In this document: one piece after another, positions 17,369 to 54,396 of the stretch | Numbering within the stretch: position 1 is the stretch's first letter | Layout of the letters: the number at the start of each line of letters is the position of its first letter | NCBI GenBank assembly: GCA_030605795.1 | Contig: JAUWHR010000014.1 | Location: forward strand, 1 to 64,000 | Direction: 5' to 3' | DNA from: Anaerolineae bacterium | GTDB lineage: Bacteria; Chloroflexota; Anaerolineae; Anaerolineales; E44-bin32 | Length of the DNA stretch: 64,000 nt | Translations under genes and position numbers: made by a program | Notes under the pieces: model-generated | What the model saw: the letters and a program-made list of their open reading frames with translations, nothing else | Database searches by the model: none | Told to the model about the DNA's origin: nothing

Positions 17369-18552
17369 TCACTGCCCTGCTAATAGACCTTGATAATACG
17401 CTGCTCGGGAACAACATGGAAGATTTCATCCCAACCTACCTCAACCGGCTGGGAGCCTACATGGCCGATATGGTGCCGCCTGATCGTTTCATTACCGAAT
17501 TACTGCACGGCACACGAGCGATGATGGAGAACCTCGATCCAACTGTCAGTATGGAACAAGCCTTTGCCGAGGCTTTCTACCCTGCTTTAGGCTTACCCGA
17601 GTCGGCTGTTAGGTCTCAAATCGGTGATTTCTACGCGACAGTCTTCCCAACCCTTCAGACAATTACCACCCATCTTCCTGAAGCCGAACAGCTTGTCCAA
17701 AGTGCGCTAGAGGCCGGACTTGAAGTTGCCATCGCTACAAGCCCACTCTTTCCACGTACAGCTATTGAACAACGCCTCGACTGGGCTGGTGTACCTGTAG
17801 AGCGCTATAACTATGCCTTGATCACCAGCTATGAATACTTCCATTTCTCCAAACCCCACCCGGAGTTCTATGCTGAAATCCTGGGAAGATTGGGTATATC
17901 CCCCCACGAAGCCGTTATGATCGGCAACGACCCTGAAAACGATATCGCTCCTGCTCAAACCATGGGGATGTCCGTCTTCCACGTAAGCCGTTCCCCACTC
18001 GATGCCTTTCCTGGAGGTCAGTTAATCGATGTTATTCCATGGCTGGAACGGGTCACAAATCAAAACCGCCCAGAAGCGGCTAACCACTCGAAAATACTCA
18101 TAGCACGACTCCGCGGCTACCTAGCCGCCTTGATCGGTATGGTCACTTCTCTCGATGAAAAAATTTGGACCCGACGACCGGCGGAGGATGAATGGGCACC
18201 CATCGAAATCGTTTGCCACCTGAGGGATGTCGAAAAGGAAGTCACTCTCCCCCGGGTTAAGACGATCTTGACCGAAACCGACCCTCACCTTCCCCCCTTC
18301 GACACAGATCGTTGGGCAGAAGAGCGGGATTACATCCACCAATCAAGTCCTGATGTGTTGGCTGATTTCATCCAAGTTCGAAAACAAACTATCTCCCTGC
18401 TAACAACGCTCAATATGGAGGATTGGTCTCGCTCAGCCCGTCATTCTTTATTCGGACCGACGGCTTTGGCAGAGATCGTTAACATTGCCACCGAACATGA
18501 TCTGATCCATTTGGGTCAAATGCGATCGGCTTTGGAGAGTAAGGTGGTCTGA
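17365..18552 (+). CDS. HAD-family hydrolase with C-terminal DinB-like domain
   Basis: ALLIDLDNTLLGNN (motif I), IATSPLFP, IGNDPENDIAPAQTMGM (motif IV); C-terminal DinB-like helices (DEWAPIEIVCHLRDVEKEV...EHDLIHLGQM). Confidence 0.82.
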   Translation: MITALLIDLDNTLLGNNMEDFIPTYLNRLGAYMADMVPPDRFITELLHGTRAMMENLDPTVSMEQAFAEAFYPALGLPESAVRSQIGDFYATVFPTLQTITTHLPEAEQLVQSALEAGLEVAIATSPLFPRTAIEQRLDWAGVPVERYNYALITSYEYFHFSKPHPEFYAEILGRLGISPHEAVMIGNDPENDIAPAQTMGMSVFHVSRSPLDAFPGGQLIDVIPWLERVTNQNRPEAANHSKILIARLRGYLAALIGMVTSLDEKIWTRRPAEDEWAPIEIVCHLRDVEKEVTLPRVKTILTETDPHLPPFDTDRWAEERDYIHQSSPDVLADFIQVRKQTISLLTTLNMEDWSRSARHSLFGPTALAEIVNIATEHDLIHLGQMRSALESKVV

Positions 18553-18878
18553 TAGCAATCCCTTTTTCGCCCCCCCAACCATTCCATAAAAATCGCCTCA
18601 ATATTCTTGGGTGGGGTGTGGTGTGTAGTGGAGGGACGTGAGGATATTTCGAGGAGATGTTATCGGTAAGATTGGGGAAATCTATTGAGAGCCAATGTGG
18701 ACAATTGTTTAATCTCATTAGACCAATATTGATAGGTTATCTGACCAATGATTTCACTTGAATTTTGTATAGGCCACGAGATGACCATTTCTCGATTTAT
18801 AAATTCGTTATCGGACATTTATTTATATAGTTATAAATCTCAACCATCTTCTTGATAAATCTGTGAATAGTCTCATTG

Positions 18879-21800
18879 TCATTGTGTACCTCGACGTGAT
18901 AATAACCTGCGAAGGTCACCAAGCAAACTAGTCTTCTTTCTAGGTGGTATTCTTTTATCTTTGGCGATAATATTTACCATGATATTCTCTAACCTTCGTT
19001 GTTCACGAATTGTGAAGCTACGAGTACCGTATAGGTATCTCAGCCGAAAATAGATGATCTCTCGCAAAAACCGAATATCGATAATCTCTTTAGTCAAAGC
19101 ATCCATCTTATCTAAGTATCGAGGAAGACGTAGTTCTGTATAAATAGCTAAATAAAATACTTTTAGGTATATTGGTAAATCGCCACTGTCAATTTCCTCT
19201 TCAAGTATTAGTGCAAGTTTCGGAGTACCCAACGAAAAGCTTAAAAGCGACTGCACAAGCATTGTTGGAACTATTTTCATAAACCAAAGGAAGGTTTCCA
19301 CAACTACTTCGGAATCAACAGCTTGTTCTTGTATGTCATCTCCCGTAACCTCCTTTACCCTCTCTTCGAACTTTCGCATGTCCTCTTCGTCAAAGGACTC
19401 GCTAAATGATTCAACCGTAAGGATTAGTAGGTAAAGTAGTTCTATGCTAGTTTCCAAGCAAAATCTAATATGCTCCTTTTTCAGTTGCTTACTATCAATC
19501 AATTCGCAATTTCTTATTAGCCGTGCATATAGTACAAGAATTTCGAGTGCGTTTGACTGAGAAGCAACAGCATCATCCGTTAATTCTTCCGAAGTTCGTA
19601 GGTCATCCTCTTCTTCGCTATCAAGTATCTGGGCTTCGATTACTCTGTCATATATAGCATCCTTAATTTCTTCAGTTAGTCTAGATGCTCGAAGCTTTTC
19701 AACGAAGTTTTCTTTCTCATCTTCTGGAATTGATTCTATAAGACTTTTGTTAAGTTCGATTTCACCAAACTTGGAGATACTAATTTCATGTAAACCCAAT
19801 CTCTCATATAACATTTCAATGTTCTTTTTGAGCCTTTCCATGATAAGCGACAGGAGGTCTTCATTTTTACGGACTAATCCTGTGAGATAATCTATTGAAT
19901 TTGCATATTTCAGGTATCCATCCTCTCCGATAATTACTTCATAAAACTCGGTGTCCTCAATCATCTGCTTTGCCACGAAATATTCAAAGAACGCAATCGA
20001 CCTAAATGAAACCAAATCACCTTGTTGTACAAGTACACCTCTCTGGATTAGAAAATCAAGGATTGTTTGAACTCCTCCTCTAATTGGTAGGCCACGACTT
20101 GAAAAGTAGTCATTCAAGTGCATAAGAGCATCATCGAGAGATATCCTAATTTCGCTGGTTTCTACAAGGTATTTAGCCATATTCGCAAGAAGATCTTCAA
20201 TATTTCTGAAGTCAATGCCACCTGGAAGTAATTCCTCTTGGGGGGATTTGCTTATTAGGATTTCAATGAAATCTTGGATAAGCGTTGCTTTATTTATAGG
20301 TTGGTATTCTCTTTCATGCTCAATTACAAATAGGATAATAGAGATGATAAATGGTGTGCGAGGTAAATTTAAATCGATTAGCTGGTAAAGAATAGTATCT
20401 GCAACTTCACTTGGAGTAAAATCAAGCGTGCTCTTCTCATACCATTTCTTAGCTAATAGCCGAATCTGCTTTCGTCCAAACGAATGTATATAAATCTGGT
20501 TTACCTCAATGCCTAAATCTGGAATCTTATCAACTTGCAATTCAAGCAGTAGATCTTCATTGAGAGTAAACATGTATTGTTGATTTGGATATTCCTCAAT
20601 GAAAGAAACTAATAACACTAATCCCTTTTTATCGTGCAAATCGAAGTCATCAATAAGCAATATCCATTTCTCGTTGCTAAGAAAATCGTTCACATCGATT
20701 TCAATTCCGTAATTATGAAGGTAGTTATTGATTGCGTGTCGGATGCTATCACTGCTTTTTGGTAGATCTCTCCAATTCAATAATAATGGCACCTTTGCTG
20801 CACTCATATTCGCAGGCTCTAGATACCTTGAACTAATGAAGTTCAATAAAGTAGTTTTTCCACTCTCCTGATCTCCAATAAATACGACATTCTTTTCTTC
20901 CTCAATAAGTTCATCGAGAGTTATGGCTACGTCATCTGCCTTCTTCGTTTGTTCTGACCTCAATGAAAGAGGGGGTTCGACAAATACCTCTTCTAATTCT
21001 CTTGGCAAGCTATATGGATGAGTAGAAGGTAGAAGGATGCTGTTGATACCTTTTACAGCAATTTCACGAATTCTTGTTATTATGCTTAGATTAACAGGTA
21101 TTGGTGTAGTGCTTGATTTTGACAATTCGAAACTTACCTGACCGGATGTTTGATCATAAGCTAGAGCCGGCACAAAGCTCCGACTTCGGTCAATGTACTC
21201 TCTAAGATTAACAGTGCCATTATTCTCGTCAAGGGAGTAGTTGATTATCGAATAGCCATTGAAATACTCTCTCCTGAAAAATAATGAGCCACCACTGATG
21301 AGTATTATCTTGTTATTATCAATTGGTTGAACTAAGTCGATGTCAGGTTCATGTGAATGTCCAGTTAGCAAAAAGCTGAATGCGCCATAGACTCTTCGCT
21401 TGATTTCATTCCGCTCAAAATCTCGTAAGTAACTAATAGGATGATGCATGGTCAATATTCGCAAGTCGCAATCTGACAACTCTTCTATGCATCTATCAAC
21501 TACCCTTTCACCAACAATTAATTGACCGTAGTCTTCGTCCCCTCCGTAAGCTCGCCAAGCAGTATTAATACATGCAATTCCGATTTTCCTCTCTCCGTGA
21601 GAGAATTCATATGTGTAGTGAAATACATCCCTGGTCAGTAAATGTTCATTTGGTATGCTGTTAAGAAAATTATCAAAATTCGTCATTCTTTCGAAGAATT
21701 CAGGGTATTCTGAATAATTATCGATTAGTGTATTAACCTTGTCACGATCTGTTAAGTATGATGTCATTCCTTCTTCATGAATTGTTTTGATTTTAGATCT

Positions 21801-22097
21801 TTGGATATCGTGATTGCCTGGACAAAAGAAGATGTTGTTTAAATCCAATCCAAGATGATCGAGGAGGGGGTTAATAAATTGCTCTAGAACCTCCTCATAA
21901 TCAGATCGACCTTTTGTATATCCAAAATCTCCGTTAATTATTAAATCACCAGAAAAAACTACAATGTCAGGTGAAAGTCCTTGATTCTTATGGAGTAACA
22001 AATCATTGAATAATGCTTCAGTAACTATCTTAAATTCCTCAATACCTTCTAATTTGAAGTGCAAGTCTGATAGGTGGAGAATCCTTAAATATGCCAT
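18879..22097 (-). CDS. calcineurin-like metallophosphoesterase fused to STAND/NACHT-like NTPase; candidate defence protein
   Basis: Start MAYLRILHLSDLHF with upstream AGGAG. MPE motifs DLH, FSGDLIINGD, PGNHDIQ, MHHP, GHSHEPD; Walker A FIGDQESGKTTLL, Walker B WILLIDDFD; long helical acidic C-terminus. Confidence 0.85.
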   Translation of the reverse strand: MAYLRILHLSDLHFKLEGIEEFKIVTEALFNDLLLHKNQGLSPDIVVFSGDLIINGDFGYTKGRSDYEEVLEQFINPLLDHLGLDLNNIFFCPGNHDIQRSKIKTIHEEGMTSYLTDRDKVNTLIDNYSEYPEFFERMTNFDNFLNSIPNEHLLTRDVFHYTYEFSHGERKIGIACINTAWRAYGGDEDYGQLIVGERVVDRCIEELSDCDLRILTMHHPISYLRDFERNEIKRRVYGAFSFLLTGHSHEPDIDLVQPIDNNKIILISGGSLFFRREYFNGYSIINYSLDENNGTVNLREYIDRSRSFVPALAYDQTSGQVSFELSKSSTTPIPVNLSIITRIREIAVKGINSILLPSTHPYSLPRELEEVFVEPPLSLRSEQTKKADDVAITLDELIEEEKNVVFIGDQESGKTTLLNFISSRYLEPANMSAAKVPLLLNWRDLPKSSDSIRHAINNYLHNYGIEIDVNDFLSNEKWILLIDDFDLHDKKGLVLLVSFIEEYPNQQYMFTLNEDLLLELQVDKIPDLGIEVNQIYIHSFGRKQIRLLAKKWYEKSTLDFTPSEVADTILYQLIDLNLPRTPFIISIILFVIEHEREYQPINKATLIQDFIEILISKSPQEELLPGGIDFRNIEDLLANMAKYLVETSEIRISLDDALMHLNDYFSSRGLPIRGGVQTILDFLIQRGVLVQQGDLVSFRSIAFFEYFVAKQMIEDTEFYEVIIGEDGYLKYANSIDYLTGLVRKNEDLLSLIMERLKKNIEMLYERLGLHEISISKFGEIELNKSLIESIPEDEKENFVEKLRASRLTEEIKDAIYDRVIEAQILDSEEEDDLRTSEELTDDAVASQSNALEILVLYARLIRNCELIDSKQLKKEHIRFCLETSIELLYLLILTVESFSESFDEEDMRKFEERVKEVTGDDIQEQAVDSEVVVETFLWFMKIVPTMLVQSLLSFSLGTPKLALILEEEIDSGDLPIYLKVFYLAIYTELRLPRYLDKMDALTKEIIDIRFLREIIYFRLRYLYGTRSFTIREQRRLENIMVNIIAKDKRIPPRKKTSLLGDLRRLLSRRGTQ

Positions 22098-22418
22098 TGA
22101 TAGTCTCCTCTTTAAATATTTTGAAGATTGCAAGCCTGTTTCTCTTAGATATTATCGTTAGATCTATTTGCCTCTTGGCTCTCTGTTTTTAAGATATACC
22201 CGACCTCAATCGAAGTCGGGCTTAGTTTTGCGATGTAAGTGCCTGGCACCCCACTACGCCGAGGCTGAACTGTGTAGATATAGATTACATCAGGTGAAAA
22301 CCTGATTCAAGGAGAAAACAATTCTCCATCTGAATACATGATACACAAACCAACCTTAGGAAACCCTCAAGATAATATTACTAGTTCTCAATTGAATTAA
22401 TCACTAGGAAAAGATACC

Positions 22419-22451
22419 GCCCCAGCACACCGGAGGGGGGCCGGCTGGGGC
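22419..22451 (-). terminator. probable terminator downstream of DUF4145-like gene
   Basis: GCCCCAGC (22419-22426)/GCTGGGGC (22444-22451) inverted repeat; T-rich sequence follows on the minus strand. Confidence 0.5.
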
Positions 22452-22517
22452 TTTGGCGTGCTCGCAAAGCCACGCCTTGGTCATTTTATTTACAGAGATA
22501 GGTTATGTCAAACGGAT

Positions 22518-23231
22518 TTATTGCGTTTGTGGTGGTGTTTGTGATTGCGCTTTGTTGTTAGTCGGATGCGGCATTTCTTTTATATATTTATCCGAAATCT
22601 TAATGGACACGATAAAATTCACAACCAAACCTATCAAATCCTTAAGTTCGTCCAATCCCATCTCTTCCCATTTTCTAGTATAGTGTGTCTCATCATTTCC
22701 AAGCCAGGTTGCCCTTTCTGCTAATGCTTTAATTCTACGGTCCTCAATATGATCTGATATAACCTTTCCAAGTGGTACCTTCCTTGCAATCTTCTCCTTC
22801 AGTTCTTCATCTTCCACCTGATCAATCACAAAGTCCTTTACTAAGAATTCAAGCGCCTTACGATAGCCACAACCACAAACCTGTTCTAATCCTCTCGCTT
22901 CAGCTGCTTCAGCATCGTTATAAATTCCTTGAAATTTGGGCGAGATTTTATTTATCTCATCAGAAAAGGATGTCCCAATATAAGCCTTTGGTGCAGAATT
23001 CAAATATATATATGAAGTTCTACCAAGACAGCTGTAATAGGCGATAAATAGCTTTTGACACTTTAATCTTGTGCAGCGGCAAACCAATTGCAGGTCATAA
23101 TAAGTATCATAAGCATATATCACCACCGGATCGATTCCATGGTTGCACAAGGGACACGTATCTGGTTTATGCTCAATCATTCTTGAATTTTTTTCGCCTT
23201 CGACGTCTACTGATGGTATAGAAATCGTCAT
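22518..23231 (-). CDS. DUF4145-like zinc-ribbon protein
   Basis: CPLCNHGIDPVVIYAYDTYYDLQLVCRCTRLKCQKLFIAYYSC then ARGLEQVCGCGYRKALEFLVKDFVID...LGNDETHYTRKWEEMGLDELKDLIGLVVNFI; resembles DUF4145 layout. Confidence 0.65.
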   Translation of the reverse strand: MTISIPSVDVEGEKNSRMIEHKPDTCPLCNHGIDPVVIYAYDTYYDLQLVCRCTRLKCQKLFIAYYSCLGRTSYIYLNSAPKAYIGTSFSDEINKISPKFQGIYNDAEAAEARGLEQVCGCGYRKALEFLVKDFVIDQVEDEELKEKIARKVPLGKVISDHIEDRRIKALAERATWLGNDETHYTRKWEEMGLDELKDLIGLVVNFIVSIKISDKYIKEMPHPTNNKAQSQTPPQTQ

Positions 23232-23512
23232 TATTCACTTCCTAGAAATACTCATGATGACTACGCAAATAAGAGTCTATCCCACATTAGAGCAAGTGCA
23301 AAGTACTTCAATGCACCTCATAGTGATAAGCACACAGGGATGAAAATAAGTTGCCCCCAACCTGAGGGGGAACAGGCTGAGGGCTTCAGGCGTACTTGCT
23401 TATGCTCGCTTGTTAAAGAGTAAAAAGGTCAGTCACAAATCTAGGGGATTGTTCTGAAGGTCTATGCTTGGAATTATGCGGACAATGAAGGTGCCTACAC
23501 GATGCTGCCAAC

Positions 23513-24301
23513 TCAGCCAATCGCTTCTTCGAAAGCCACAGCTTCCAATTCCGCCATTCCTATTTTAAGTAGGAACATTTCGATCGACTCTTCTTTAGGT
23601 AGCTTTCTTTTTCTCCTTGATAGGAACCTGGCAAACGTCGCTGCTGGACTAACCAGTGAAATCAAATCATCGATTCTTCGAGCTTTGTATAACCCTCTAA
23701 GTTGATCAATCCAGCTTCTTGGTTTTCTCACATTGACAGTCCCAAACTTGACCCCTCTGACCATCACACGTGCAATAGCTGTAACCCATTCATCATACGT
23801 TGGATAGTCTGAAGCTCCTTTCTCATAACCGAGGTCGCCCAATAATATCTGATGGCCCTCGCTTCTATTATTATCAAACATCTTTGGATGATTCCACCAA
23901 TTTAAGAGTAAATAATTCATAAAGATTTCCTTCTTTTCACTTCTTCGGATTATTTCACCGATAACTTCAGGTCGCCTATCTTTTAACGGGTATCTTTCTC
24001 GCACTTCATTATCGGATTCATTTATGGCATTAATATAGGTTCGATATTGTTGGACAATTTTATCAATCTCGTTATCAGTTGATTGGAATGTTCTACTAGA
24101 ATCGCTTTCCAAACTCTCCTTTGCACTCAACTCCCTCCCACAATATCGGCATTTAATAGCATCCGATCGAATCCACTCAGCACAGTAAGGACATTTTTTA
24201 CGGTCTTCTGAGGGCAACTCTGTTTCTAACTCACGACCGCAATAACGACAAACAATTGCTTCATTTTGGATTTCTTCAGCACAGAAGGGGCATTTCTTCA
24301 T
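23513..24301 (-). CDS. tandem double-zinc-ribbon hypothetical protein
   Basis: KKCPFCAEEIQNEAIVCRYCGREL...KKCPYCAEWIRSDAIKCRYCGREL followed by an uncharacterised region. Confidence 0.72.
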   Translation of the reverse strand: MKKCPFCAEEIQNEAIVCRYCGRELETELPSEDRKKCPYCAEWIRSDAIKCRYCGRELSAKESLESDSSRTFQSTDNEIDKIVQQYRTYINAINESDNEVRERYPLKDRRPEVIGEIIRRSEKKEIFMNYLLLNWWNHPKMFDNNRSEGHQILLGDLGYEKGASDYPTYDEWVTAIARVMVRGVKFGTVNVRKPRSWIDQLRGLYKARRIDDLISLVSPAATFARFLSRRKRKLPKEESIEMFLLKIGMAELEAVAFEEAIG

Positions 24302-24373
24302 TGGAGGTCCCCTGGAGGTCGAGCAACTACAGTCTATAATCCTTGGTCGGAAGGAGTCTGGCTGAGGTCTGAG

Positions 24374-24742
24374 TTACTTCGGCGTTGAACTAGAGCCTTC
24401 TTCTACTGGTAGTTCCCGGCCACAATAGCGACACACAATAGCTTTAGCTTTTATTATTTCTGCACAAAATGGACATTCTTTTATTTCTGGGAGTTTTGGT
24501 CCAGGTTCAGAATATCCACTCCTAAGAGTTTGTCTAGTAATTCTATTAATCTCGGTATCTCTTTTATTTTTTTGCCGACGAATTACTACTGTTTTAAATA
24601 CCCAAAACCCCAACATAAATAGAATCCCGAAAATCCCGTTACTGTAATCCCCTTCAAACATTAGAATGATGCTGAAAATTATAACCAATGCGAAAATGCC
24701 CACTTCTCTTGCTGTCCATCCTGACATTGGCTCCTCCTTCAA
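24374..24742 (-). CDS. membrane protein with C-terminal zinc ribbon
   Basis: Two hydrophobic segments then ECPFCAEIIKAKAIVCRYCGREL, near-identical module to the neighbouring ORF. Confidence 0.7.
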   Translation of the reverse strand: MKEEPMSGWTAREVGIFALVIIFSIILMFEGDYSNGIFGILFMLGFWVFKTVVIRRQKNKRDTEINRITRQTLRSGYSEPGPKLPEIKECPFCAEIIKAKAIVCRYCGRELPVEEGSSSTPK

Positions 24743-24966
24743 TTTAAACGAGTAACGCTACGAATATCGCAATTCCAGCCCACTTCCCCTTGATGTACCA
24801 ATGGCTGCCCCTATAATAAAATATTCTTCCTACTGTTCTGTAATGCCAGGGTGTCACTCGTGAGTACAATAGTCACAAATCGCCACTCGATCTAAGGGGG
24901 GCACGCCAATGAGTTGAACGTCCTACTTTCCCCTTTGGTACTAGTTGGACGCCTGATTTCATTCTA

Positions 24967-25233
24967 CTACAGGAATCTATCAATTGGGCCATGCTCCCTA
25001 TGAGCCTCTGACAAATCATCCTTCACCATTTCCACATACCGTCTGGTCATTTCCAGGGTTGAATGACCCAATAAACTCTGAAGGTGAAGGACATTCATTC
25101 CTGCTTTCAAACTTAGTATAGCAAGGTGTGTGAGGTCACTATTGATTGTAGAGCCCTTAGAAGCCCTCCTGGTTCTTTGTGGGTGAAGTATAGGGGCATT
25201 CTCATTTATTGAGAAAAGTGTCAATAGGTCCAT
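24967..25233 (-). pseudogene. degraded tyrosine recombinase C-terminal remnant (1)
   Basis: DLTHLAILSLKAGMNVLHLQSLLGHSTLEMTRRYVEMVKDDLSEAHREHGPIDRFL; the normal HxLRHTFA box is eroded to LTHLAIL. Confidence 0.78.
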
Positions 25234-25291
25234 GTAACCTATGAGCCTCTACCAAATCATCATCCAACATTTGGACATACCGACGAGTCAT
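25202..25291 (-). pseudogene. degraded tyrosine recombinase C-terminal remnant (2)
   Basis: Manual translation: MTRRYVQMLDDDLVEAHRLHGPIDTFLNK*, homologous to the ends of remnant 1 and the intact recombinase. Confidence 0.78.
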
Positions 25292-25298
25292 CAAAACT

Positions 25299-26141
25299 TC
25301 AATTCAAGAATCGGTCCACTGGTGAATGATCCCTATGTGCTTGAAGCAAGTCCTCATCAACTTGGGCGACGTAGACACGAACCATATCCAAGGTACGGTG
25401 ACCGAGTAGCCTCTGTAAAGCTATCAGATTAATTCCACTCCGAAGCGCCATAGTAGCAAAGCTTCGTCGACATTTGTGGCAACTTATTTTCACCCCTGAA
25501 CTCTTGCTGATCCTTTCCATTGCGGAGGCTAACCCAGAACCGGTTAGATTGAAGATTCGTCCATTGTCATCAGGAGCTTTCATTCTCCACTTCAAGAGAG
25601 CACGGCGGGCTTTGACCCCAATTACTGCTGTACGGGCTTTACCACCCTTCCCGTTGCGTACAAGTATGCTTCCTGTCTTTATGTCAACATCATCCCAAGT
25701 CAGGTCCAATAGCTCAGCCCTCCTTAGCCCACTATCAATCAAAACAAGGATGATTGCCTTATCTCTAAAATTACAGACTGTCAAGACCTTCTTGATCTCA
25801 GCGGGGGTAAGAACTTCCATCCGCTTTTCGTGTACCTTGGGCATATCAACCGTGAAGATGTTAGCAAGATACCCCTCAGCATGTGCAAAGCGTACGAATG
25901 CTCTAATTGCCCTTGCATGGGCGTGAACGGTGGCGCTTGAAACTCCCCGTTTTGCCACACTAGCCAGAAACCTTCGCACATCCTGTGATGTGATATCATC
26001 TGTCTGCAAGCTCTCAATGAAAGGGGTCAGCATTCGTTGGTAAAAGTCTAGGGTGTCTTCACTGCACAGCTTCGCTTCTCTACTTAGTAAGAAGTCTGTC
26101 AGAATCACGTGCCCGTTCATGCTGGTAGCCTCCTGTTCCAC
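25299..26141 (-). CDS. tyrosine recombinase/integrase (XerC/D-like)
   Basis: DSGLRRAELLDLTWDDV (Arg I), CHKCRRSFATMALRSG (HxxR), LLGHRTLDMVRVYV (GH...Y); N-terminal SAM-like core-binding domain. Confidence 0.9.
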   Translation of the reverse strand: MEQEATSMNGHVILTDFLLSREAKLCSEDTLDFYQRMLTPFIESLQTDDITSQDVRRFLASVAKRGVSSATVHAHARAIRAFVRFAHAEGYLANIFTVDMPKVHEKRMEVLTPAEIKKVLTVCNFRDKAIILVLIDSGLRRAELLDLTWDDVDIKTGSILVRNGKGGKARTAVIGVKARRALLKWRMKAPDDNGRIFNLTGSGLASAMERISKSSGVKISCHKCRRSFATMALRSGINLIALQRLLGHRTLDMVRVYVAQVDEDLLQAHRDHSPVDRFLN

Positions 26142-26238
26142 CAGCGACGAGGCTCAAATTTCCTGTCCCTCACTTTTTCAACCCCCCGACATAAGTCTAC
26201 TTTACATCACTAGTAGCGCCAGATATAATCAATTGAGC

Positions 26239-51000: not shown

Positions 51001-51039
51001 TAAAAAAAGTAATCAGCGTTGGCTGCGCAGCCCACGCTG
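51001..51039 (-). terminator. Rho-independent terminator/attenuator between glycosyltransferase gene and tyrS
   Basis: CAGCGTTGGCTGCGCAGCCCACGCTG hairpin (51014-51039) followed on the minus strand by TTTTTTT (51002-51008). Confidence 0.75.
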
Positions 51040-51263
51040 GTTTCATCAGAAAAACGGTGACAATGGACAACTCACTCGGCGTTGAGCGCGCAGCAGACTC
51101 CGGAGGTGGGGCGGCAACCGCCCCTGGTATAGATATACCGTCGTGCGCCTAGGACCATGAGGAAATCCAAATCGATACAATCATATCACATTGATTTTAA
51201 TACCTGCAAACGAAAACAACAACGATTGTAGGTCACGAAAAAGGACAAAACGGGTGATCCTTA

Positions 51264-52871
51264 TTACCGTACCCATAATACTATTTCATCCGAGACGATT
51301 TCTGTTGAGAGGGTAACTGCTTCATAGCCATGTTGGATCGCAAAACGAGTAAGTGGTTTTTCAAGTCCACCACGATCTCCAAAGCCAAATCCATCATTTT
51401 TACTCTCAAATCCAACCAGTATCGCGTCTGGCGGATTATTCTCCAAGTAACCGTCTAAGTCCAGATACGAAATTACACCGTACTCCTCTCTCTTTTCCTC
51501 AGATAACAAGAAAGCAGTCCTCCAGGTGAAGGGACCTGTAGCAAAAGCCTCATAAATATCCAACCCCCCTTCCAGAGGCATAATAGGTGCGAGTGTTAAA
51601 ATTTTTCCTTCACCCAACAAGGATTTAATATCCATTCCAAAATTGTGTACTTGAATAGTGAGCAATTGATTGGGGTGGTTCATCAGTTTAATATCATCAA
51701 AACTAACGATACGAGCACTGCCAATAATTATGGCTGGAAGAAGAGGAATAATAATCAGAAACCAGCTCAACTGCCTCCGTTTACCAAATAAGGTACTGAA
51801 ACCAAAGAATATTCCCAGGATGAGGAATGGGATTGGCGCATAATAATATTGATACCATGAGGGGGTAGGACCAAATGACCCGATTAAAAGGAACAAGCTT
51901 AACCCAAAGGCAAACACAAGCGACATTTTAGTGCTCGTTTTCGTCACCATGCTCTTCACGGTAGCGGTGACCATAATGACGAACAAACCCAGGTAAAGGA
52001 GCATATTCAGGGGAGAGGAAATCACATCAGTAAGAAAGTAGATTATTTTCCCCGCAATTGTCATACCAGTTCGGTGTCTCAATAATTTCCGATAGACAGG
52101 ATTTAGTTTTGGATAAATAACATTTCCGAAGATAAAGAATTTTGGATTAGCGATGAATAATACAATAGCTGGTAATAACCCCAGAAACACCCCAATAGAA
52201 AATGCAATGATATGCAAGTGCTTTGAAGTTCTCGACCGTTGGGAAGGAAAAATAAGAAAAGCCCCGAGATATGGGATTATTACCGTTGCATAAGACAGAC
52301 GAGCCCCAATTGCCAGCCCTAAGAAAATCCCGCTCAAGAAGACCTTTCGCGTTGAAATATCTTGATTATCGTAACGATAGAGGAATGCAAACGATAATAG
52401 GACAAACAAGGTTGGAAGATCATGGTTCCATGCCTTACCACTGACACTGTCAAAGAGTGGGTTCGTTATTAGTAGGACTACACAAGCAACTGCTAGTAGG
52501 TTTCGGATAAGTGAACCTTGACCATAAAAATGCTGATACGTGATATAGAAGAGTATCCCTGCACTTATAGTTGCACAAACTACGGAAAAAACTCGGGCAC
52601 CTAATAGACAATAATTTGTTAGTTTAAATAATAATGCGTAGATTAAAACCAGATTAGGCATATGATGAAATGGATAATCTATGTAAGGAAAAGAAAACTG
52701 ATCTGCAAGTAGTTTCCCACCGGCTACAAATTGATGCTCATCATGATTTATTTCCGCGTTCAGGGATTTGCTGAGAAGTAGAATGAAAATAGCTAAAAAG
52801 AACAACGAAACACCGATAAATTGAAGTACTCTTGATGAGATTCGTAGTCCGGGTTTCCACTTCTTACTCAT
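51264..52871 (-). CDS. multi-pass membrane glycosyltransferase (GT39/PMT-like)
   Basis: 535 aa, many TM segments; early NHDEHQFVAGGKLLADQFSFPYIDYPFHHMPN resembles the acidic loop of GT-C enzymes. Confidence 0.75.
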   Translation of the reverse strand: MSKKWKPGLRISSRVLQFIGVSLFFLAIFILLLSKSLNAEINHDEHQFVAGGKLLADQFSFPYIDYPFHHMPNLVLIYALLFKLTNYCLLGARVFSVVCATISAGILFYITYQHFYGQGSLIRNLLAVACVVLLITNPLFDSVSGKAWNHDLPTLFVLLSFAFLYRYDNQDISTRKVFLSGIFLGLAIGARLSYATVIIPYLGAFLIFPSQRSRTSKHLHIIAFSIGVFLGLLPAIVLFIANPKFFIFGNVIYPKLNPVYRKLLRHRTGMTIAGKIIYFLTDVISSPLNMLLYLGLFVIMVTATVKSMVTKTSTKMSLVFAFGLSLFLLIGSFGPTPSWYQYYYAPIPFLILGIFFGFSTLFGKRRQLSWFLIIIPLLPAIIIGSARIVSFDDIKLMNHPNQLLTIQVHNFGMDIKSLLGEGKILTLAPIMPLEGGLDIYEAFATGPFTWRTAFLLSEEKREEYGVISYLDLDGYLENNPPDAILVGFESKNDGFGFGDRGGLEKPLTRFAIQHGYEAVTLSTEIVSDEIVLWVR

Positions 52872-52956
52872 CTTTAGCTCTTATCAAGAAATGGTCAGGA
52901 AAAACTGATGATCGTATGGGTCTCTATAGTATGTAGCTTATTATGATCAGCTCGAC

Positions 52957-54396
52957 TTATGGTTCCGATAAGCATAATCCACATAATTTATCCCACCCCT
53001 GCAATATACCTTCACTGATCACCTCGACATCCTCTTGTTTAGCCTCAACCAGAGGCTGCCTCTGTCCACCTATGAGTTCGATTGGGTCTCCATGCACGAC
53101 GGAGACCAGGCACCGACCAAGAAGGCAATCCACAGCATAGGTACCATCCTCCGCGATGAATCCCATCACCCCGGCACCGAAACCGATGAGCGAAATAGTC
53201 TTTCCCTCCACGGTGACCTGGATCTCGCGATCCCCCTCACCGCGCACGACAAGTAGTCTCCCAGATATCAAATCTAAAACGGTACACATCGTCAGCGATA
53301 GCTGGTCCCCACTCGACGTTTCAGGATGTGGATCAAGGATCGTAAGCAGAGTTCGGCTCCCACCAGTCAGGTAGAAGGATGTGGCTGAGAGATCGAATGA
53401 GCCCTCATAGGTTGTCTGCAAGGCCAAACGGGACTCATTTAATGCGGTTAAAGTCGCTCCAGCTGGAATTGTCCCCAGGTTACTTACCATGCCGATAGAT
53501 TCCCCCTCCACGGCTTTGTCCACCCTCACCGAACCATGTATCAGAACCGCATAGCCATAGTCTACCGGTGGGGGAGGAATCCGACTTTCCCGGAGCCAAT
53601 TGATCCCCACCACGCTTAAGGCGAGGACCAACAGAACTCCAACAATGGCGGCTGAGATTGTAACTGGTCCTCGACCCCCTCGCGCCCGACCTCCTGGCAA
53701 CTGCACAACCACTACAGATACATTGTCGTCTACGTCCCGCCCCATGGCGATGCTGAGCAAGTGACGGGCTGCCTCTAATGGCGTGTTTCCTTCGACATAG
53801 TCTGCGATGTCCTCCGGATGAACGAAAGGTTTCCCATCCTCCGGGCTGACCCGGGTCAGGCCATCTGAAGCGAGCACGACACTATCGCCAGGATTGAGGG
53901 CCATTCCCTGTGGATCCCCAGTTTGAATAACCGGTGGATCTAAGGAGCCCAGCAGTTGATCCCCCACACCAGTTAATGGGATGGCTCGTCCCTCTCGCAC
54001 CAAGACAGCCATGGTGTGGCCCACCTGTGCGTAGAAAAGTCGATCTCTCCATATAGCGATGGCAGTTAGGGCGACCTCCCCCAACCCTTCTCCGCTTATG
54101 CTGGCATCCATCAAGAACCGACCGCTATCTTCCAATTGACCACGCAGCACAGAATTCAGATCACGATCGCGCGAGCGGGTTACTCCTTCAAACAGCTGCG
54201 CTACCACCATCTCGGCTGACTCACCTGCTTGGGGGTGTCCTTCGCCATCGGCCACAACCGCCAAGATAAGGTCCTGGCCAACACCCGTGCGTACAGTCTC
54301 AACCCTTACTCTGTCCTGTTGTGGGAGTTCAGGTGAAACCGCCCCTGGGCTTCGTTCGCTTGCATATGATCCCCGTTGGCGGCGAATGGACATCAT
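52957..54396 (-). CDS. PP2C-like protein (degenerate active site) with TM and FecR-like extracytoplasmic domain
   Basis: VVADGEGHPQAGESAEMVVAQL, VVLASDGLTRV, DDNVSVVVVQLPGG; canonical GDSR replaced by VGHTM; TM VGVLLVLALSVVGINWL. Confidence 0.8.
   Translation of the reverse strand: MMSIRRQRGSYASERSPGAVSPELPQQDRVRVETVRTGVGQDLILAVVADGEGHPQAGESAEMVVAQLFEGVTRSRDRDLNSVLRGQLEDSGRFLMDASISGEGLGEVALTAIAIWRDRLFYAQVGHTMAVLVREGRAIPLTGVGDQLLGSLDPPVIQTGDPQGMALNPGDSVVLASDGLTRVSPEDGKPFVHPEDIADYVEGNTPLEAARHLLSIAMGRDVDDNVSVVVVQLPGGRARGGRGPVTISAAIVGVLLVLALSVVGINWLRESRIPPPPVDYGYAVLIHGSVRVDKAVEGESIGMVSNLGTIPAGATLTALNESRLALQTTYEGSFDLSATSFYLTGGSRTLLTILDPHPETSSGDQLSLTMCTVLDLISGRLLVVRGEGDREIQVTVEGKTISLIGFGAGVMGFIAEDGTYAVDCLLGRCLVSVVHGDPIELIGGQRQPLVEAKQEDVEVISEGILQGWDKLCGLCLSEP

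What the first reader, a model, noticed from the sequence alone, without database searches (positions are those of the whole stretch)
18879..22097. Metallophosphoesterase-STAND/NACHT-like fusion: candidate undescribed defence effector
One ~1,070-aa protein joins a motif-complete calcineurin-like phosphoesterase (DLH, GD, GNHD, HH, GHSH) to a P-loop ATPase with Walker A (GDQESGKT) and hhhhDD Walker B in a NACHT/STAND-like context, followed by a long acidic helical C-terminus. Effector-STAND-sensor is the layout of known anti-phage STAND proteins (Avs, bacterial NACHT). Here the effector would be a nuclease- or nucleotide-phosphodiesterase-like MPE. It sits in an AT-richer, recombinase-bordered island. 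Defence function is inference.
Basis: partly seen in the sequence, partly recalled or inferred. Interest (0 to 1): 0.7.

Follow-up and report, generated by a model that had tools for sequence, protein, structure and literature searches.

The report
Distant relative of anti-phage protein DS-8
A bacterial gene on a small mobile DNA island encodes one large protein that joins a phosphate-cutting enzyme to an immune-receptor-like ATP switch; it is a distant, untested relative of the anti-virus protein DS-8, described in 2026, so it is a good defence candidate but not a new kind of system.

Summary
A 1,072-aa gene lies on the MINUS strand (start 22097, stop 18879). It joins a motif-complete metallophosphoesterase (1-310), a NACHT/STAND NTPase (about 391-730) and a helical C-terminus (731-1072). 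An AlphaFold model (mean pLDDT 82) matches NLRC4, NLRP3, NOD2, Avs4 and metallophosphoesterases such as Rv0805.

It is not an undescribed effector. The whole protein matches the PADLOC candidate PDC-S60 (E 2e-121) and, below cut-off, NCBIfam DS8_antiphage (239 of 790 bits). DS-8 (DefensePredictor, Science 2026) is a metallophosphatase-NACHT protein shown to stop phage in E. coli; mutating either domain abolishes defence. Calcineurin-STAND fusions were also predicted as immune proteins in 2021.

New here: (1) 36 full-length relatives from bacteria and prophages keep all seven metal ligands; (2) their neighbours match 174 PADLOC models against 2 for matched controls; (3) the gene lies on a 7.7-kb AT-rich island absent from three congeners; (4) a sister integrase island in the same genome carries another single-gene candidate, PDC-S06.

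Verdict: new member of a known kind, at family/architecture level rather than a DS-8 equivalog. Anti-phage activity of this protein is inferred, and the substrate of the whole family remains unknown.

The parts
18879..22097 (-). DS-8/PDC-S60-type metallophosphoesterase-STAND protein, 1,072 aa; the finding's gene
   Evidence: ORF; PADLOC PDC-S60 E 2.3e-121 over residues 4-1044; NCBIfam DS8_antiphage E 6.5e-71 over 8-1015, 239 bits, below its equivalog cut-off of 790
21168..22097 (-). Effector: calcineurin-like metallophosphoesterase domain, residues 1-310
   Evidence: PF00149 E 7.6e-15; metal ligands D11, H13, D51, N95, H218, H247, H249 identical in 37/37 relatives
19908..20927 (-). Switch: NACHT/STAND NTPase with helical/winged-helix part, residues about 391-730; Walker A 408-415, Walker B D483
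   Evidence: nSTAND_NTPase4 in 36/37 members; profile matches NLRC4; fold matches NLRC4, NLRP3, NOD2, Avs4
18882..19907 (-). Presumed sensor: all-helical C-terminal part, residues 731-1072
   Evidence: model secondary structure; less conserved than the effector (about 17-20% against 28% identity to relatives)
18534..26196 (.). 7.7-kb AT-rich integrated island between a HAD-DinB gene and the tRNA-Leu promoter
   Evidence: absent from congeners G001, G002 and G004, where the gap is about 61-69 bp; GC 40% against 53%
25299..26141 (-). Tyrosine recombinase of the island, 280 aa
   Evidence: PF00589 E 2.6e-26; also present beside tRNA-Leu in G003
24967..25291 (-). Two tandem C-terminal remnants of related recombinases (24970-25131 and 25208-25291)
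   Evidence: (D1)
22518..23231 (-). Island cargo: 237-aa protein, weak DUF4145 match, not shown to be linked to the main gene
   Evidence: PF13643 E 6e-4, below cut-off
23513..24742 (-). Island cargo: two zinc-ribbon proteins (262 and 122 aa), not shown to be linked to the main gene
   Evidence: PF13248 E 7.7e-12 and 4.2e-5

Best explanation
It is a single-protein anti-phage system of the metallophosphoesterase-NACHT kind (PADLOC PDC-S60; relatives of DS-8), acquired horizontally on a small integrase island. Proposed working: the C-terminal helical region and the STAND module hold the protein inactive with bound nucleotide; a phage component binds the sensor; ATP exchange drives oligomerisation as in Avs proteins and NLRs; clustering activates the N-terminal two-metal phosphoesterase, which hydrolyses a phosphodiester (most likely a nucleotide, possibly nucleic acid) and stops phage multiplication. 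Shown here: architecture, intact catalytic and Walker motifs, family relationship, defence-rich neighbourhoods of relatives, mobility. Shown by others for DS-8: phage protection that needs both domains. Inferred: that this protein defends, its trigger, oligomerisation and substrate.
For: Full-length PDC-S60 match E 2.3e-121 and DS8 model E 6.5e-71. All 37 aligned members match DS8_antiphage, 35 match PDLC05051 and 2 match PDLC05050. Seven metal ligands invariant in 37/37; Walker A lysine in 32/37 and here; Walker B D483 in 37/37. Profile matches LMO2642, Rv0805 and Mre11 for the enzyme and NLRC4 for the NTPase. Foldseek matches NLRC4 5e-10, NLRP3 2e-9, NOD2 1e-7, Rv0805 2e-7, Avs4 2e-6. Neighbours of 15 homologues match 174 PADLOC models, 116 control genes from the same contigs match 2, at E 1e-15. 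Homologues in an E. coli prophage between lysis and antitermination genes, in provirus contigs, beside methylase, restriction and Pycsar-type genes. DS-8 experiments: PMC13092281.
Against: Only 18-36% identity to relatives and far under the DS8 equivalog cut-off (239 of 790 bits), so DS-8's tested properties may not all transfer. Five of 37 relatives lack the Walker A lysine, so ATP use may not be universal. No known defence gene was recognised beside it on its own island. The 174 models come from relatively few genes, because PADLOC holds many overlapping models. No activity was tested.
Confidence: 0.8

Rival explanations
1. Same defence protein, but the effector is a nuclease of the Mre11/SbcD kind that cuts phage or host DNA or RNA, rather than a nucleotide phosphodiesterase. 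(This is a rival to one step of the best explanation, not to the whole.)
For: The profile also matches Mre11/SbcD chains at E 5e-7 to 4e-3; 23 of 37 members match a PADLOC effector model described as 'Endonuclease'; viral-fold hits include SbcD-like exonucleases.
Against: The best enzyme matches by profile and fold are LMO2642, Rv0805 and purple acid phosphatases; the DS-8 authors found SMPDL3A, a cGAMP phosphodiesterase, closest. The DNA-capping domain of Mre11 was not looked for.
Confidence: 0.3
2. A nucleotide-signalling regulator or stress protein with the same fold, not a defence protein.
For: Metallophosphoesterases are widespread housekeeping enzymes; this genome has eight Pfam Metallophos matches. 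This protein is untested.
Against: Patchy presence: only this genome has a match over the whole protein among 101 relatives and 396 class members sampled. Mobile island, defence-rich neighbourhoods of relatives, prophage carriage, and the validated relative DS-8.
Confidence: 0.08
3. It belongs to a multi-gene system with the neighbouring DUF4145-like and zinc-ribbon genes of the island.
For: All four genes are on the same strand of one island; zinc-ribbon proteins also lie downstream of the prophage relative L106.
Against: The gap to the next gene upstream is about 420 bp and contains a stretch repeated elsewhere in the genome; closest relatives have other neighbours; DS-8 works as a single protein.
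Confidence: 0.1

Closest known systems
DS-8 (DefensePredictor system; NCBIfam NF053861)
   Same: One protein; N-terminal metallophosphatase plus NACHT; match along nearly the whole model (1-967 of 994).
   Different: 239 bits against an equivalog cut-off of 790; not an equivalog. The E. coli DS-8 sequence itself could not be retrieved, so no direct pairwise identity is given.
PDC-S60 (PADLOC putative defence candidate; PDLC05051)
   Same: Full-length match, residues 4-1044 to positions 1-995 of 1027, E 2.3e-121.
   Different: Nothing in architecture; PDC families are predictions, described in PMC12988326 as mostly unvalidated.
DS-9 (NCBIfam NF053862)
   Same: Homologous metallophosphatase (E 9e-17, residues 5-236).
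   Different: DS-9 is two genes with a HAD phosphatase; the match here covers only the enzyme domain.
Avs and other bacterial NACHT/STAND proteins
   Same: Effector - STAND NTPase - C-terminal sensor layout; Avs4 is found by fold (E 2e-6).
   Different: Different effector; no Avs profile match; the helical C-terminus has no recognised repeat family.
Class III cyclic-nucleotide phosphodiesterases (Rv0805) and SMPDL3A
   Same: Two-metal calcineurin-like fold and ligand set.
   Different: Those are stand-alone enzymes; substrate here unknown. The SMPDL3A comparison is the DS-8 authors', not repeated here.

Membership tests
PDC-S60 / DS-8-like metallophosphoesterase-NACHT family | Full-length match to the family profile | tested here: met
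   PDLC05051 E 2.3e-121, residues 4-1044
PDC-S60 / DS-8-like metallophosphoesterase-NACHT family | Intact metal-binding motifs of the phosphoesterase | tested here: met
   all seven ligands, invariant in 37/37
PDC-S60 / DS-8-like metallophosphoesterase-NACHT family | NACHT/STAND NTPase with Walker A and B | tested here: met
   GDQESGKT, ILLIDD; fold and profile matches to NLRC4
DS-8 sensu stricto (NF053861 equivalog) | Score at or above the curated equivalog cut-off (790 bits) | tested here: not met
   239.3 bits
DS-8 sensu stricto (NF053861 equivalog) | Protects against phage, dependent on both domains | not testable with these tools
   shown for DS-8 only (PMC13092281)
Avs (anti-viral STAND) | STAND NTPase core | tested here: met
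   fold match to Avs4, E 2e-6
Avs (anti-viral STAND) | Match to an Avs protein profile | tested here: not met
   no Avs model among PADLOC hits up to E 1
STAND/NACHT (Pfam PF05729, PF24406) | Pfam score above gathering threshold | tested here: inconclusive
   15.8 of 26.7 bits and 26.0 of 27 bits in this protein; nSTAND_NTPase4 matches 36/37 relatives at E <= 0.01
Mre11/SbcD nuclease | Capping domain and SbcC/Rad50 partner | not tested
   no SbcC/Rad50-type gene was noticed on the island; the capping domain was not examined

The most novel reading that the evidence does not exclude
The clade of this protein (the window genome, Atribacterota, Nitrospirota and a prophage) recognises a phage trigger different from that of DS-8 and, when switched on, destroys a particular nucleotide as a bacterial counterpart of SMPDL3A. 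In this host it is one of several interchangeable single-gene defence cargoes of one integrase-island family (PDC-S60 beside tRNA-Leu, PDC-S06 beside tRNA-His).
Probability: 0.25. Interest if true: 0.55.

Novelty: new member of a known kind. Interest (0 to 1): 0.3.

Why it matters
It extends a defence family validated only in E. coli to a deep-branching environmental lineage and shows which parts are under strict conservation (the enzyme) and which vary (the presumed sensor). The family's substrate is the open question: an immune receptor whose effector destroys a nucleotide would link bacterial defence with human cGAMP control through SMPDL3A. A set of 37 diverse full-length members gives material for that biochemistry.

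Tried and rejected
(1) The first genome-contig search with the single protein found no relative; the profile search did. (2) Attempts to find the E. coli DS-8 gene by distant DNA search failed with four genes; a fifth found an E. coli prophage relative that is not the DS-8 equivalog (170 of 790 bits). (3) Phage records: no match. (4) Literature search for 'PDC-S60' by name: no paper. (5) att-site direct repeats at the island ends: none convincing. (6) Rfam found nothing in the island region except the tRNA. (7) Matches in class members G122, G147, G197, G263 and G285 cover only the enzyme part and were not counted as full-length members. (8) The idea that the GC-rich intergenic stretches are integron attC sites was considered but not tested; the recombinase was not compared with IntI.

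Full report
WHAT IS THERE. The gene is on the minus strand, 22097 down to 18879, 1,072 aa, with a good ribosome-binding site. A chance open frame of this length at 37% GC has a probability of about 10^-33. Residues 1-310 are a calcineurin-like metallophosphoesterase (PF00149, E 7.6e-15). Residues about 391-730 hold a P-loop NTPase with Walker A GDQESGKT and Walker B ILLIDD. Residues 731-1072 are helical in the model and mildly acidic.

IS THE NTPASE A STAND? In the single sequence the Pfam scores for NACHT and nSTAND_NTPase4 are below threshold, the latter by one bit. Over the family, nSTAND_NTPase4 appears in 36 of 37 members; a profile of the alignment finds NLRC4 and the plant NLR NRC2 among solved structures; and the AlphaFold2 model (mean pLDDT 82.3, pTM 0.70) matches NLRC4, NLRP3, NOD2 and Avs4. 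TM-scores over the whole query are low (0.16-0.29) because each match covers one part of a three-part protein. The top-ranked fold match by E-value is an integrative model of YydD-YydB; I searched the library once without a useful paper and did not follow it further. I take the STAND assignment as established at fold level.

IS IT KNOWN? Yes, as a kind. PADLOC's PDC-S60 model matches residues 4-1044 at E 2.3e-121. NCBIfam's DS8_antiphage matches residues 8-1015 at E 6.5e-71, but at 239 bits where the equivalog cut-off is 790. DS-8 is described in the DefensePredictor paper (PMC13092281): a single protein with a metallophosphatase domain resembling human SMPDL3A and a NACHT domain; it protects E. 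[quoted passage not shown] its substrate is unknown. A 2021 analysis had listed calcineurin domains among the N-terminal effectors of STAND proteins (PMC8195603). PDC families are described as putative candidates found by 'guilt by embedding' (PMC12988326). So 'undescribed effector' is not supported, while 'defence effector' is.

THE FAMILY. A profile search found full-length relatives in Atribacterota (36% identity), Nitrospirota (33%), Bacillota, Bacteroidota, Pseudomonadota, Thermodesulfobacteriota, Myxococcota, WOR-3 and several provirus contigs. In a 37-member alignment all seven metal ligands and Walker B D483 are invariant; the Walker A lysine is kept in 32. Mean identity to this protein falls from 28% in the enzyme to about 17-20% in the C-terminal half, as expected if the C-terminus senses varying phage proteins; faster drift of a scaffold would look the same. 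In the tree, this protein is sister to the Atribacterota one (support 100/99), then Nitrospirota (99/97), then prophage L106 (97/96). Together with its absence from nearly all sampled relatives this indicates horizontal transfer.

NEIGHBOURHOODS. For 15 homologues on long contigs I took four genes on each side (115 genes) and 116 genes from a place about 36-93 kb away on the same contigs. Neighbours matched 174 PADLOC models at E <= 1e-15, controls 2. Many models overlap, so the number of defence genes is much smaller than 174; individually seen are a type I methylase (L036), a type II restriction enzyme (L039), a methylase and a helicase-like gene (L033), and a DpdF-like protein (L032), while eight other large neighbours checked had no match. 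On plasmids, one relative lies next to an Eco57I-type gene and near a Pycsar-type effector, another near a cytosine methylase and Vsr. An E. coli relative (23% identity over the whole length) lies in a prophage between lysis and antitermination genes.

THE ISLAND. Three congeners have the same flanks, a HAD-DinB gene and tRNA-Leu plus trigger factor, with about 61-69 bp between the matched flanks where this genome has 7.7 kb (18534-26196). The island ends just upstream of the tRNA promoter. The closest relative G003 has the same recombinase beside its tRNA-Leu, but its contigs break inside the region, so its cargo is unknown. A second island of the same genome (contig C70, beside tRNA-His) has a 45%-identical recombinase, shares an 88%-identical 255-bp stretch with this island, and carries an 867-aa PDC-S06 protein (E 8.7e-147). 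Two islands with one candidate defence gene each is suggestive, but two is a small number.

HOW IT PROBABLY WORKS. Sensor binding, nucleotide exchange, oligomerisation and activation of the enzyme are inferred from STAND proteins in general. Whether the outcome is loss of a nucleotide or a cut nucleic acid is open: the enzyme part resembles both class III phosphodiesterases and Mre11/SbcD, with the best scores for LMO2642 and Rv0805. I put about two to one on a nucleotide substrate.

VERDICT. A real and intact gene, very probably anti-phage, from a family already in PADLOC with a validated relative. A new, deep-branching member of a known kind; not a DS-8 equivalog.

Noticed in passing
L161 (own genome contig C70, 2300-7940): A second AT-rich integrase island beside tRNA-His with a related recombinase (45%) and a full-length PDC-S06 candidate defence protein (E 8.7e-147); shares a 255-bp 88%-identical intergenic stretch with the window island.
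   Followed up: partly
24970-25131 and 25208-25291: Two tandem C-terminal remnants of tyrosine recombinases behind the intact one, as if several insertions had followed each other at this site.
   Followed up: partly
22196-22450: Intergenic stretch with partial copies on at least five other contigs of the genome (C46, C14, C35, C51, C22), possibly a dispersed repeat.
   Followed up: no
alignment A2 rows L046, L053, L058, L108, L109: Relatives with intact metallophosphoesterase motifs but a degenerate Walker A lysine; they could be nucleotide-independent or switch differently.
   Followed up: no
L022 (K. grimontii plasmid record CP079755): The neighbouring annotated genes (YueH family, M4 peptidase) look Bacillus-like and the gene's N-terminus is nearly identical to provirus L107; possibly a misassigned record.
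   Followed up: no
51001-53000: A second AT-rich stretch of the window (41% GC), not examined.
   Followed up: no
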